This document shows positions 1 to 51,023 of a stretch of DNA of 51,023 bases, piece after piece. This DNA comes from an uncultured Eubacteriales bacterium (GTDB taxonomy: Bacteria > Bacillota > Clostridia > Christensenellales > Aristaeellaceae). Positions within the stretch are counted from its first letter, which is position 1. Each line of letters begins with the position of its first letter. The notes beneath the pieces were generated by a model. The model worked only from the letters and a program-made list of their open reading frames with translations. It was not told the DNA's origin and ran no database searches. Location of the stretch: NCBI GenBank assembly GCA_902801765.1, contig CADCJO010000023.1, positions 1 through 51,023 of the forward strand, read 5' to 3'. Made by a program: the position numbers and the translations under genes.

Positions 1-215
1 GATTATTCCCTGGCTTTCCCCGGATGCTTTGCATCCGGGTTGGCGGCTTCGCCGCCGGGCCAGAAGCGCAACGGCGTCAAGCCAGACTTCCACGTTCCTC
101 CAAGCATCAGCGGGAACCAGGCTGATTTTCCAATCCAAGCCATACCCGCTATTGAGGTCCAGGAGATGAAATCTCCTGGTGCAGGTGCATGAGGGCCACA
201 CAAGCCCTCGCCCCG
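1..215 (-). repeat. Family 2 composite hairpin-array repeat, copy a (cut by window edge)
   Basis: Non-coding. Read on the minus strand it is a row of short hairpins: GAGGGC/GCCCTC (191-209), CCAGGAGAT/ATCTCCTGG (159-179), GGCGGC/GCCGCC (42-56) and CCCGGATGC/GCATCCGGG (19-39). The same sequence in the same order occurs on the plus strand at 23661-24032; in 138 bases aligned by hand there are 22 mismatches. The differences show no codon-position bias (about 4, 9 and 6 single changes at positions 1, 2 and 3 of the longest open frame), so the open frames through it look spurious. Its head would lie near 215-260, where similarity fades. Confidence 0.75.
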
Positions 216-16796: not shown

Positions 16797-17078
16797 AGGG
16801 GGTTTCCTCCTTTATAGGTTCCTCATTCATGGTGGGTACGCAATGCCCCCATGAGAGGTCGGATGCTGTGTCACACTCTCTCGTTTCTCCGTTCGTTCTT
16901 GAGAACGAAGCCAGGCGGAGAGAGGGCGATGAACGTTTGGGGATGTGCCTTAGATTCGGGATGGGATTTCCCTGATAAGGGCCGCAGCTGTAGCAGCGCT
17001 ACCGCAAGGCCCGCAGAAGGGAAAGACCGCCCGAAGATGAGGCACAGCGCCGAACGGGCATCGCACGAACGACGCCAA
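16797..17078 (-). promoter_or_regulatory. Structured 282-base spacer at the S10/spc boundary
   Basis: No gene. Besides the family 1 element at 16944-17046 it holds a hairpin with arms TTCGTTCT/AACGAA enclosed by CTCTC..TCTCCG / CGGAGAGAG (about 16876-16924) and a smaller CATGG..CCATG hairpin close to rplN. No convincing promoter was found. The place corresponds to the S10/spc operon junction of E. coli, so a regulatory, processing or attenuation role for rplN and followers is plausible but unproven. Confidence 0.5.
16944..17046 (+). repeat. Family 1 nested-hairpin element, copy A
   Basis: Five stems nest exactly: TGTGCCT/AGGCACA (16944-16950, 17040-17046); TTCGGG/CCCGAA (16955-16960, 17030-17035); TTTCCCT/AGGGAAA (16967-16973, 17018-17024); GGGCC/GGCCC (16979-16983, 17008-17012); GTAGC/GCTAC (16990-16994, 16998-17002). 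It shares the GTAGC-AGC-GCTAC hairpin and the AAAGAC..CCC.AAGAT block with copies B and C. In the orientation of copies B and C it is antisense to the ribosomal transcript. Confidence 0.65.
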
Positions 17079-17339
17079 TTACTTGGCTTTTTCGATGATT
17101 TCCACCAGCCGCCAATGCTTATCCTTGGACAGGGGACGGCATTCCATGATCTTCACGGTGTCGCCGATGCCGCAGGCGTTTTCTTCATCGTGCACCTTGA
17201 TTTTGCTGGTGCGGGTGATGAACTTGCCATACAGGGGATGACGCACGCGGGTGGACAGGCTGACCACGCAGGTCTTGTCCATCTTATCGCTGACGACCAC
17301 GCCAACGCGGGTCTTGCGGATGCCTCTTACTTCAGACAT
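17079..17339 (-). CDS. rpsQ: 30S ribosomal protein uS17
   Basis: 16S rRNA-binding OB-fold protein, 86 aa. [38 protein letters not shown] and the C-terminal [20 protein letters not shown] are diagnostic. Start ATG 17339 is 8 bases after AAGGAG; a GTG at 17357 would include that site in the coding sequence. Last gene of the S10 block. Confidence 0.97.
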
Positions 17340-17367
17340 GGTATTGACTCCTTTCACGGCTTATCGG

Positions 17368-22634: not shown

Positions 22635-22695
22635 ACTTAGTGAATGGGACGATTCTTCCCCCGCGAATTGCTCATGGTGGAGCTGGTGAGAGGTT

Positions 22696-22870
22696 ATACT
22701 AAACTCAAGCTAAAAATGTATCAGATTTGGGATGGATTTTACGCCGTGGCTAAGCTGAATGGAGGGAGGCGTAGCAGCGCTACGTTGACCGGCTACGTTG
22801 ACCGGAATGAAGCAACGCCATGGCGTAAAAGACACCCAAAGATGATATAGTTTTAAATTGAGTTTAGTAT
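22696..22870 (+). repeat. Family 1 nested-hairpin element, copy B, with 13-bp terminal inverted repeats
   Basis: Terminal inverted repeat ATACTAAACTCAA / TTGAGTTTAGTAT (22696-22708, 22858-22870) encloses TTTGGG/CCCAAA, then TTTTACGCC/GGCGTAAAA extended by TGGC/GCCA, then the CGTAGC/GCTACG hairpin. A 13-base unit (GCTACGTTGACCG) is duplicated just after the hairpin. The right end abuts the stop codon of the metallophosphoesterase gene. Size, inverted ends and lack of coding potential resemble a MITE or REP-like element. A 66-codon frame running through it is judged spurious. Confidence 0.7.
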
Positions 22871-23613
22871 TAAATCACCTTCATCGGCGTCCATTCCAGA
22901 TAATCGCCGGAAACGAGACTGTACCGGATGCCATTTTTCACGCCCAGGATGCTGTCATGGAAGCGGGACTGGCCGTGGCAGTGGGCGTAGATCACCTGCT
23001 GCGCGCCGTATTCCTCGGCCATGCGGGTAAACGCGCTGTCCTTTTCCAGGATGTTGGTGGGCGGATAATGCAGAAACATGATCAACTTTTTGTAGCCGTC
23101 CCGCTTCGCCGCTTCAAAGGACACCCGCAGCCGTTCCGCTTCCCGCTCCACCAGCTTTGCCGCGCGGGCGGCTTCCTCCTCGTCCCAGCCCACCACACGC
23201 CTTTTCCGGTCAAGGTAAAAGGGCCCCTCGAACGTGAAGCCCTTCGTGCCCACCAGCGCGAAGTCCTGATAGGCGGCGTAATTGTTTTGCAGGAAGAACA
23301 GCTTGCCCGCGAACCGCTCGTTCAGCGCGGCTGTCTTTTTCGCGTCCCAAAACATATCGTGGTTGCCCCGCAGCAGAATCTTCCGCCCCGGCAGGGAGAG
23401 AATATATTCAAAGTCTTTTTCGCACTCCGCCATGTTCCGGCCCCAGCTGTGGTCGCCCGCCAGCAGCAGCGTGTCCTCCGGGCCGATCATGCGGCGGCAG
23501 TTCTTCAGGAACCGTTCCTCATGGTTTTTCCACACCGACGCGGTCAGCTGGCCGTGAGCTTTCAATTCGGATTGAAAGTGCAAATGAAGATCGCCGATCG
23601 CAAATAAACTCAA
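22870..23613 (-). CDS. Calcineurin-like metallophosphoesterase
   Basis: Predicted metal-dependent phosphohydrolase, 247 aa. The motifs of the fold are present in order: GDLHLH (residues 7-12), LAGDHSWG, LLRGNHDMFW, MFLHYPP and AHCHGQSRFH. The substrate is unknown; related Firmicutes proteins are annotated only as metallophosphoesterases. Start chosen at TTG 23613, 9 bases after AGGAGG, which yields the typical N-terminus before IGDLHLH; a longer frame begins at 23652 without a better site. A single gene flanked by repeats on both sides. Confidence 0.88.
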   Translation of the reverse strand: MSLFAIGDLHLHFQSELKAHGQLTASVWKNHEERFLKNCRRMIGPEDTLLLAGDHSWGRNMAECEKDFEYILSLPGRKILLRGNHDMFWDAKKTAALNERFAGKLFFLQNNYAAYQDFALVGTKGFTFEGPFYLDRKRRVVGWDEEEAARAAKLVEREAERLRVSFEAAKRDGYKKLIMFLHYPPTNILEKDSAFTRMAEEYGAQQVIYAHCHGQSRFHDSILGVKNGIRYSLVSGDYLEWTPMKVI

Positions 23614-23660: not shown

Positions 23661-24032
23661 ATCAGTCATGGTATGAAGGATGATAATAAAAACGAGGCAG
23701 GGGGCTTCTTCATCCCCCTGTACCCCTGAACCAGGAGATTTCTCACGGGGCTGCCGCCCGGCCTACGCTGACAATGATCCACTGGATCATTGTCCGGGCG
23801 CTTCGGCCCTCCTGGACCTCAACAGCGGATATGGCTTGAATTGGACAATTAACTTGGTTTCCGCTATTGCATGGAAGAATGTGGAAGCCTGGCGTGGCGC
23901 CGTGGTGCTTCTGGCCCGGCGGCGAAGCCACCAACCCGGATGCTTTGCATCCGGGGAAAGCCAGGGAATCATCCGTAGGGGAAAGTTTACTTTCCCCCTC
24001 GGATGTTCCCGGGCTTTCTTGGGCCAGAAGCC
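23661..24032 (+). repeat. Family 2 composite hairpin-array repeat, copy b (fullest copy)
   Basis: Order of parts: head CAGTCATGGTATGAAGGATG; GGGGGC..CCCCC hairpin with the flank TACCCCTGAACC; a CCAGGAG/CTCCTGG stem (23730-23736, 23808-23814) whose loop holds an inserted arm with CAATGATCC/GGATCATTG (23771-23791); a 120-base conserved body; GGCGGCTTC-type hairpin; CCGGATGC/GCATCCGG; GGGGAAAGT/ACTTTCCCC (about 23979-23998). Copy a (1-215) has the same body with a simple hairpin instead of the inserted arm. No coding potential. Confidence 0.75.
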
Positions 24033-32368: not shown

Positions 32369-32389
32369 TCCCATTCCTATTCCACATTC

Positions 32390-32406
32390 TTAGCTTGAGT
32401 TTAGTA
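32390..32406 (-). repeat. 17-base match to the end of family 1 copy B
   Basis: On the minus strand TACTAAACTCAAGCTAA, identical over 17 bases to 22697-22713, the left terminal inverted repeat of copy B. Here it stands alone in the AT-rich gap between the ROK and LacI genes. It could be a solo end or footprint of the element. Confidence 0.55.
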
Positions 32407-37279: not shown

Positions 37280-37457
37280 AGTTTATGTGGTTTTCTGTAT
37301 GGAGATGGGGATTTTTGTTTTTTGCCCTTGACAAACAGTTCTCGCTGTTTCAGCCAATATTAAGAAACAGCATGGAACGCCATCATGACCAAGATAGGAT
37401 GGGAGGGAAGCCATGCTGGCCAATAGCAAGAATATTGGTTCCAATTCCTGCAGATAA

Positions 37458-37506
37458 ACAAGCCCTCTGCCTCGTCTTTGTTTTCACCCTTCACAACATG
37501 ACTGTT
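37458..37506 (-). repeat. Family 2 repeat, head segment (copy c)
   Basis: On the minus strand it begins AACAGTCATGTTGTGAAGG and matches 50929-50978 with one single-base gap and one substitution over about 50 bases. It is followed (lower coordinates) by unrelated sequence, so only the head is present here. Confidence 0.75.
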
Positions 37507-37554
37507 AATACTGTTCTCTCTCTAAATCATTGAATAAGAATACCGACCAAAGGC

Positions 37555-37620: not shown

Positions 37621-37706
37621 CCCCCAAGGGGGAAATCTTTGGGGTTACCCGTTGATTCAACGACTTAGAAGATGAACAGTATTATACTATTTCTCGTCTA
37701 AACCAT

Positions 37707-37778
37707 TGAATCTTCGGGCGTCTTTTCCGTCCTGGCTGTGCTTCATTCCGGTCAACGTAGCGCTGCTACGCCTCCCTT
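37707..37778 (-). repeat. Family 1 element, copy C (partial)
   Basis: On the minus strand it contains GGAGGCGTAGCAGCGCTACG, then TTGACCGGAATGAAGCA, then AAAAGACGCCCGAAGAT, all shared with copy B (22766-22843). The left outer arms found in copies A and B are not recognisable; a terminator hairpin stands there instead. Confidence 0.65.
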
Positions 37779-37781
37779 CAT

Positions 37782-50878: not shown

Positions 50879-50928
50879 CCGCTTCGCCTCCTCTCACGGC
50901 ATTAATGCTTTAATACTATTCGCGTTCT

Positions 50929-51023
50929 AACAGTCATGTTGTGAAGGGTGAAAAACAAAGACGAGGCAGGGGGCTTGTTCAGCCCCCTGTACCCCTGAAC
51001 CAGGAGATGAAATCTCCTGGACC
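50929..51023 (+). repeat. Family 2 repeat, copy d (cut by window end)
   Basis: Begins AACAGTCATGTTGTGAAGG, continues with the GGGGGC..GCCCCC hairpin and TACCCCTGAACC flank, and ends in a CCAGGAGAT/ATCTCCTGG hairpin at the edge. Same order as copy b, and the simple hairpin of copy a. It starts 51 bases upstream of the twin-SGNH gene. Confidence 0.75.

What the first reader, a model, noticed from the sequence alone, without database searches (positions are those of the whole stretch)
16944..17046. Nested-hairpin repeat family 1: stems change sequence but keep pairing
Seen directly: copies A (16944-17046) and B (22696-22870) share GGGATGG.ATTT on the left, AAAGAC..CCC.AAGAT on the right and a GTAGC-AGC-GCTAC hairpin in the middle. 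The enclosing stems differ yet pair in each copy: TTCGGG/CCCGAA versus TTTGGG/CCCAAA, and TTTCCCT/AGGGAAA versus TTTTACGCC/GGCGTAAAA. Such double changes suggest that the fold is kept by selection, or by a palindrome-dependent mobility mechanism. I know no named RNA or REP class with this pattern.
Basis: partly seen in the sequence, partly recalled or inferred. Interest (0 to 1): 0.72.

Follow-up and report, generated by a model that had tools for sequence, protein, structure and literature searches.

The report
Mobile folded-RNA repeat across bacterial phyla
The window holds three copies of a short DNA repeat that folds, as a single strand, into one long hairpin; relatives with the same fold occur in many copies in unrelated bacteria, and one copy has kept its fold in a ribosomal gene cluster of nine related species, so the fold matters although its job is unknown.

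Summary
Copies A (16946-17046), B (22697-22869) and a half-broken C (37685-37781, minus strand) belong to one family: 56 model matches in this 2.4-Mb genome, matches in 22 of 29 genus genomes. Copies such as B are MITE-like: TAC...GTA inverted ends inside a T-N-A target whose middle base agrees on both sides in 39 of 44 copies. The interior is a rod-like hairpin: stems change in pairs, while G.U pairs, unpaired G.A-type sites and the CGTAGCAGCGCTACG apex largely stay. Copy A is no recent insertion: it lies between the S17 and L14 genes in 9 of 16 genomes, with 16 of 38 pairs doubly changed and 94.7% of cells paired. A covariance model built only from Desulfosarcina-type copies finds A, B and C in the window and nothing else, so the fold is shared between phyla. 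G.U pairs favour one strand, pointing to a single-stranded, probably RNA, form. It is not in Rfam; an unnamed Geobacter "short RNA element" (2009) has the same central palindrome. Neither mobilising enzyme nor function was found. One-sided breaks at the hairpin tip may be real deletions or sequencing artefacts.

The parts
16946..17046 (+). Copy A: nested-hairpin rod without TAC ends, between S17 (17079-17357, -) and L14 (16428-16796, -); the favoured strand is antisense to the operon; present at the same place in 9 of 16 genomes
16990..17002 (+). Apical hairpin GTAGC-AGC-GCTAC of copy A
22697..22869 (+). Copy B: full MITE-like element of the TACTAAACTC subtype (T2) with inverted ends
22694..22696 (.). 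Left target-site duplication TTA of B
22870..22872 (.). Right target-site duplication TTA of B
22780..22805 (+). 13-nt tandem duplication CTACGTTGACCGG inside B
   Evidence: read directly
37685..37781 (-). Copy C: apex plus right half of the T1 subtype; left half missing, break a few bases from the apex
32388..32404 (-). Isolated end fragment of a T2 element (1 mismatch); no core seen beside it

Best explanation
Shown: a family of about 100-120-nt rod-like folds (called GA-rod here) with a conserved apex (GGCGUAGC-AGC-GCUACGUY in most copies), internal G.A-type loops and stems that change but keep pairing. In the host genus most copies are the inside of non-autonomous transposons with TAC...GTA inverted ends that duplicate a TNA target. 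Copy A is an old, vertically inherited copy whose fold is held by purifying selection. Inferred: the working form is RNA (or, less likely, single-stranded DNA) of the strand that carries the G.U and G.A pairs; it probably works as a protein-binding rod, and transposon ends that differ between lineages have repeatedly picked it up and spread it. A transposase supplied in trans is assumed; none was identified.
For: Copies: 51 exact hairpins, 56 model matches. TNA middle base equal in 39 of 44 copies; T and A were required by the extraction, so only the middle base is tested. Covariation: A1, 24 genus copies, 97.5% of cells paired, 13 of 37 pairs changed on both sides (shuffle mean 4.2, 0/500); A2, 9 orthologues of A, 94.7%, 16 of 38 (mean 7.5, 0/500); A3, 26 Desulfosarcina-type copies, 92.1%, 28 of 45 (mean 14.2, 0/500). 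Strand: G.U versus A.C cells 104:6 in A1 and 24:4 in A2, 141:17 in A3. The G.A-type sites form a standard pair in only 4 of 192, 4 of 36 and 6 of 52 cells. Element A mean pairwise identity 0.78 against 0.48 and 0.63 in the spacer on either side. Between phyla: the Desulfosarcina-type model finds A 40.3, B 33.8, C 20.4 bits and nothing else up to E 10 in the window, and 9 of 9 A orthologues with 0 of 7 A-less loci. Eight genomes chosen for holding the 19-mer carry 10-128 copies, reversed controls 0-1.
Against: No transcript data. Beside A no promoter-like site; one terminator-like site 27 nt downstream on the same strand (shuffle mean 0.3). A is antisense to its operon, and copies show no sense bias to neighbouring genes: convergent 37, antisense 34, divergent 19, sense 18 of 108, from rough ORF calls. 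No neighbour protein recurred convincingly; the largest cluster, 12 ORFs in 9 loci, was not identified. About 20 bits of the cross-phylum scores come from the apex alone, and 3 of 33 loci (all Acanthopleuribacter) show no rod beyond it at E 0.001. The exact 19-mer is in only 1 of 398 genomes of the host phylum, so this is no general cellular RNA. In A2 one measure, further pair types, does not exceed shuffles (26 against 25.2, 225/500). The exact GA/GA motif is not fixed: 5 of 9 and 6 of 9 in A2, 14 of 26 in A3. Shuffles ignore relatedness; cells are not independent.
Confidence: 0.6

Rival explanations
1. The fold works as single-stranded DNA in mobility: a recombinase or replication enzyme recognises the hairpin exposed on one strand, as for attC sites or IS200/IS605 ends.
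For: The palindrome runs to the element ends; the apex is the most conserved part across lineages whose arms differ; breaks in half-elements lie beside the apex: 14 of 17 right breaks within 5-11 nt, 11 of 12 left breaks within 6-13 nt.
Against: TNA duplications are unlike attC or IS200/IS605 chemistry as I recall it; Y1_Tnp has no match in the own genome, which has 56 rod matches; A kept its fold although it has no mobile ends; DNA folding energies of the two strands hardly differ (-25.5 and -24.1) where RNA energies differ much (-59.7 and -46.3).
Confidence: 0.22
2. No function: palindromes look covarying because replication template switching copies changes from one arm to the other (quasipalindrome correction).
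For: Young copies have near-perfect arms. The mechanism itself is recalled.
Against: It would turn mismatches into pairs, yet the G.A-type sites are standard pairs in only 4 of 192, 4 of 36 and 6 of 52 cells, fixed U.G pairs stay (9 of 9 at A2 21/88; 25 of 26 G.U at A3 52/68), and the element is more conserved than its flanks.
Confidence: 0.08
3. A cis-acting mRNA element, for example a ribosomal-protein leader, terminator or mRNA-end protector.
For: A lies in a ribosomal operon spacer; convergent neighbours are the commonest setting in the own genome, 14 of 29.
Against: The favoured strand of A is antisense to the operon; orientation to neighbours is mixed and neighbours differ from copy to copy.
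Confidence: 0.08

Closest known systems
[quoted passage not shown]
   Same: Its central palindrome GRCGTAGCGCTGCTACGCC is the reverse complement of the apex of Geobacter loci found here (L121, L148); intergenic, multicopy; one copy lies between dapAB and dapL in both G. metallireducens and G. sulfurreducens.
   Different: No fold, mobility or range beyond Geobacter and Desulfotalea is described in the passages seen; the alignment itself could not be read.
Bacterial MITEs (Nezha, Chunjie, Correia; names recalled)
   Same: Short, no transposase gene, inverted ends, target duplication, many copies.
   Different: The interior is shared between phyla and covaries; ends differ between lineages while the core is kept.
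REP/BIME palindromes with RAYT transposase (recalled)
   Same: Dispersed intergenic palindromes with a conserved hairpin.
   Different: No Y1 transposase match in the own genome; much longer rod; target duplication.
Desulfotalea-1 candidate motif (PMC2864571, table row: RNA '?', Proteobacteria, no Rfam accession)
   Same: Name and host group suggest it could be the same.
   Different: Its sequence is not in the passages seen; identity untested.
IStrons and HEARO-type mobile structured RNAs (recalled; one IStron paper seen in a listing only)
   Same: Structured RNA carried by a transposon.
   Different: The short elements have no ORF; no intron or HEARO match in Rfam.

Membership tests
MITE | Terminal inverted repeats | tested here: met
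   50 distinct elements with TAC...GTA ends and equal TNA in fetched loci, most of them chosen for the apex; 0 in the same sequences reversed
MITE | Target-site duplication | tested here: met
   middle base of TNA equal in 39 of 44; copy A has no TAC ends and is not counted as a MITE
MITE | No transposase gene inside | tested here: met
   19 full short copies of 159-161 nt
MITE | Autonomous partner with the same ends | tested here: inconclusive
   DDE_Tnp_1 in 12 of 29 genomes but in neither G012 nor G014, which have 52 and 33 copies; Y1_Tnp 0 in own genome; other families not searched, genomes incomplete
REP/RAYT | RAYT (Y1) transposase in the genome | tested here: not met
   PF01797: 0 matches in G000, 19 of 60 relatives match; assembly 81% complete
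Any Rfam family | Match at gathering score | tested here: not met
   none in the window; in 17 other loci only an FMN riboswitch and a tRNA elsewhere; best sub-threshold E for A 0.86, for B 0.42
Geobacter short RNA element (2009) | Central palindrome GRCGTAGCGCTGCTACGCC | tested here: met
   met by Geobacter-group loci L121, L148; window copies B and C differ in the first base, A in several
Geobacter short RNA element (2009) | Full alignment of the 24 copies | not testable with these tools
   supplementary files could not be read
Integron attC | RYYYAAC/GTTRRRY boxes and an integrase | not tested
   considered only

The most novel reading that the evidence does not exclude
A new cross-phylum class of structured RNA, the GA-rod, that lives a double life: kept by the host at some loci for a cellular job, and again and again carried as the core of transposable elements with unrelated ends, an RNA-DNA partnership comparable in kind to IStrons or SINEs but without splicing or reverse transcription.
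Probability: 0.35. Interest if true: 0.82.

Novelty: new variant of a known kind. Interest (0 to 1): 0.64.

Why it matters
Dispersed palindromic repeats are often taken as inert. Here one fold is traced between phyla by covariance models, its favoured strand is known, and one orthologous copy has been held in a ribosomal operon spacer through the divergence of nine species. That gives a testable case of a repeat whose single-stranded product is under selection, and an RNA family not filed in Rfam that occurs in cultivable hosts (Geobacter group, Desulfosarcina).

Tried and rejected
Rfam at both thresholds: no family. RAYT/Y1 transposase: no link. DDE_Tnp_1: in 12 of 29 genomes, absent from two high-copy genomes; the IS beside copy L021 has other ends (GAGTCTGTTTC). 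Recurrent neighbour protein: none convincing. Viruses: 0 matches for two exact patterns in viral contigs; no BLAST match of B in phages or of B and one D. alkanivorans copy in plasmids. Coding in the long forms: read by eye only, changes looked structural, not coding. Likeness of the 3' half to signal-recognition RNA: by eye only, not shared by other lineages, dropped. Ribosomal leader: wrong strand. L188 (Solirubrobacteraceae) holds the 19-mer but matches the model only at the apex and its two strands fold alike, so it is probably a chance match. Print searches; only PMC2700814 holds one of the four hairpin strings searched.

Rows dropped before counts: A1 used 24 of 30 gathered copies: L104 was removed first, then L086, L098, L109, L107, L091. 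A3 used 26 of 32: L180, the first L222 copy, L363, L371, L372, L379 left out. The break count covers 48 copies close to types T1 and T2 with the exact apex; 10 of them, cut by contig ends or mixed, fall in no class.

Full report
What was checked. The central hairpin occurs 51 times exactly in the host genome (G000, 2.4 Mb, 93 contigs, 81% complete), against 8 in the reversed control that allows one mismatch. The host genus is unnamed; contig lengths tie members to gut or rumen Clostridia MAGs (G007 to RUG14052, G005 to SRR873609_bin.24).

Anatomy in the host genus. The copies fall into subtypes with different arms. The 19 full short copies gathered are 159-161 nt: TAC...GTA ends, then the base motif AGAU, a stem of about 14 pairs, internal loops with tandem G.A, and the apex. 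Of 44 oriented copies with both ends, 39 have the same middle base of TNA on both sides, 5 do not; T and A were required by the extraction. B carries TTA on both sides. Longer forms carry a second hairpin domain whose stem also changes in pairs (CGTCGATG/CATCGACG and CATCCGATG/CATCGGATG).

Fold. A1 (24 copies) has 37 pairs, 97.5% of 887 cells paired and 13 pairs changed on both sides against a shuffle mean of 4.2; slid versions reach at most 4 pairs and 46.9%. Cells with G.U outnumber A.C 104 to 6, so the window + strand of A and B is the favoured one. Model R1, built without A, finds A at 37.3 bits, E 1.6e-8, B at 125.8 and C at 54.6; B read on the other strand scores 38.2. In the genus R1 matches 22 of 29 genomes: G000 56, G012 52, G014 33; seven have none.

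Copy A is old and kept. Pfam confirms L14 and S17 on either side. Of 29 genus genomes, 16 gave an L14 match. In 9 of the 16, the own genome included, an A-like element lies between S17 and L14; in 7 it is absent (both models agree, 9 of 9 and 0 of 7). The nine have L14 identities of 94-100% to the window, the seven 92-93%, as expected for one gain or loss. Among the nine, 16 of 38 pairs are changed on both sides and 94.7% of 341 cells paired; one measure, further pair types, does not exceed shuffles. Mean pairwise identity is 0.78 in the element against 0.48 and 0.63 in the spacer around it. A has no TAC ends. Genomes with A have 3-56 model matches, those without 0-7; p is 0.005 by rank test after one match is taken off each A-bearing genome, but this is confounded with descent.

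G.A-type sites. In A1 the exact tandem GA/GA stands in 24, 23, 23 and 16 of 24 copies at four sites; in A2 in 5 and 6 of 9, in A3 in 14 of 26 at the base. These sites seldom form a standard pair: 4 of 192, 4 of 36, 6 of 52 cells. The apex loop is GA/GA in A1 (24 of 24), GNA/GA in 24 of 26 of A3, and GCA, GCC or GAA with AA or GA in A2.

Other phyla. Titles include Desulfosarcina, Geobacter and kin, Myxococcales, Bradymonadales, Acanthopleuribacter pedis, Nitrospira, Elusimicrobium, Syntrophus, Schwartzia and Clostridia. Copy numbers with up to 2 mismatches in eight genomes chosen for holding it: D. widdelii 21, D. alkanivorans 49, A. pedis 128, Pelotalea chapellei 34, Geobacter sp. AOG1 24, Geomobilimonas luticola 10, Oryzomonas japonica 73, Ca. 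Alloclostridium 22; controls 0-1. In an even sample of 398 genomes of the host phylum only the own genome has the exact 19-mer: the distribution is patchy. Desulfosarcina-type copies (A3, 26 of 32 gathered; 24 from records titled Desulfosarcina, Desulfobacterales, Desulfobacteraceae or Deltaproteobacteria, 2 titled Proteobacteria) form the same kind of rod: 28 of 45 pairs changed on both sides, 92.1% paired. Their model R2 finds A, B and C in the window and nothing else up to E 10. In 33 loci of other groups, all chosen for the 19-mer, 30 have a near full-length match at E 0.001 or better; the 3 Acanthopleuribacter loci match at the apex only at that level. The apex alone gives about 20 bits. 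A orthologues L348, L349 and L352 carry GGCG(U/C)AGC...GCU(A/G)CGUC at the apex, like the Desulfosarcina type.

Mechanism. Shown: transposition-like insertion in the genus, selection on the fold at one locus, one favoured strand, a fold shared between phyla. Inferred: an RNA-level job and mobilisation in trans. Orientation does not favour a cis-acting mRNA element: of 108 copies with rough gene lie between convergent genes, 34 antisense, 18 sense, 19 between divergent genes. By A no promoter-like site was found and one terminator-like site (17074-17087, +).

One-sided breaks. Of 48 T1/T2 copies 9 are full, 17 keep the left half only, 12 the right half only; 14 of 17 and 11 of 12 breaks lie within 5-13 nt of the apex, and several contigs end at the same place. 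These copies were found by the apex. Seen from the left arm instead, 33 of 44 exact arm motifs have the apex 48 nt on; the other 11 are seven long forms, two copies with a left-half deletion (L067, L070), L047 with a variant apex, and A. All 21 internally shortened or altered copies with both ends keep equal TNA. Centre breaks in vivo and dropout of near-perfect palindromes in libraries or assembly both fit; I cannot tell them apart.

Cargo. In G014 two elements of 1260 and 1380 nt with TAC ends and matching TNA carry the rod at one end, a different single reading frame each, and a common 3' hairpin. The L269 frame is a methyltransferase by Pfam; the L105 frame has no Pfam match and looked GNAT-like to me by eye only.

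Prior work. PMC2700814 (passages) reports 24 predicted short RNA elements with the central palindrome GRCGTAGCGCTGCTACGCC in G. metallireducens, similar ones in G. sulfurreducens, G. uraniireducens and Desulfotalea psychrophila, and one between dapAB and dapL in two species. PMC2864571 (passages) lists a candidate Desulfotalea-1 without Rfam accession. PMC2996986 and PMC2267715 (passages) were of no direct help. Other papers were seen in search listings only.

Noticed in passing
L105:1433-2698, L269:1480-2865 (genome G014): Composite TAC/TNA elements that carry one reading frame each (different ones) between the nested hairpin and a shared 3' hairpin, like mobile gene cassettes.
   Followed up: partly
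L316-L320, L336-L338 (genus genomes): A module TTCCAGTTTGTCAAA...GGCGCACTTACTCACCACC..GGTG..AGTGCGCC seems to follow the ends of different genes in several genus genomes, like a cassette end (read by eye).
   Followed up: partly
window 16797-16864, minus strand: 68-nt leader just upstream of the L14 gene has 0.96 mean identity among the nine A-bearing genomes and looks alike in A-less ones; no Rfam match in the window; possible ribosomal leader.
   Followed up: partly
window 1-165, 23685-23973, 37457-37526, 50928-51023: A second dispersed repeat family (AACAAAGACGAGGCAGGGGGCTTGTTC...CCTGAACCAGGAGATGAAATCTCCTGG); related stretches lie inside TAC/TNA ends in L071 and L010.
   Followed up: no
   Followed up: no
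L220:2333-2875: A 537-nt element with TAC ends and matching TGA duplication but no nested hairpin, so the ends may move other content.
   Followed up: no
window 16875-16926: A second palindrome (CTCTCTCGTTTCTCCG..CGGAGAGAG) between copy A and the L14 leader, very variable between species.
   Followed up: no
L121:4772-7748 and L148:890-3704: Two Geobacter-group genera have a copy beside the same neighbouring gene at the same distance (56 nt), a possible second long-kept copy; gene not identified.
   Followed up: no
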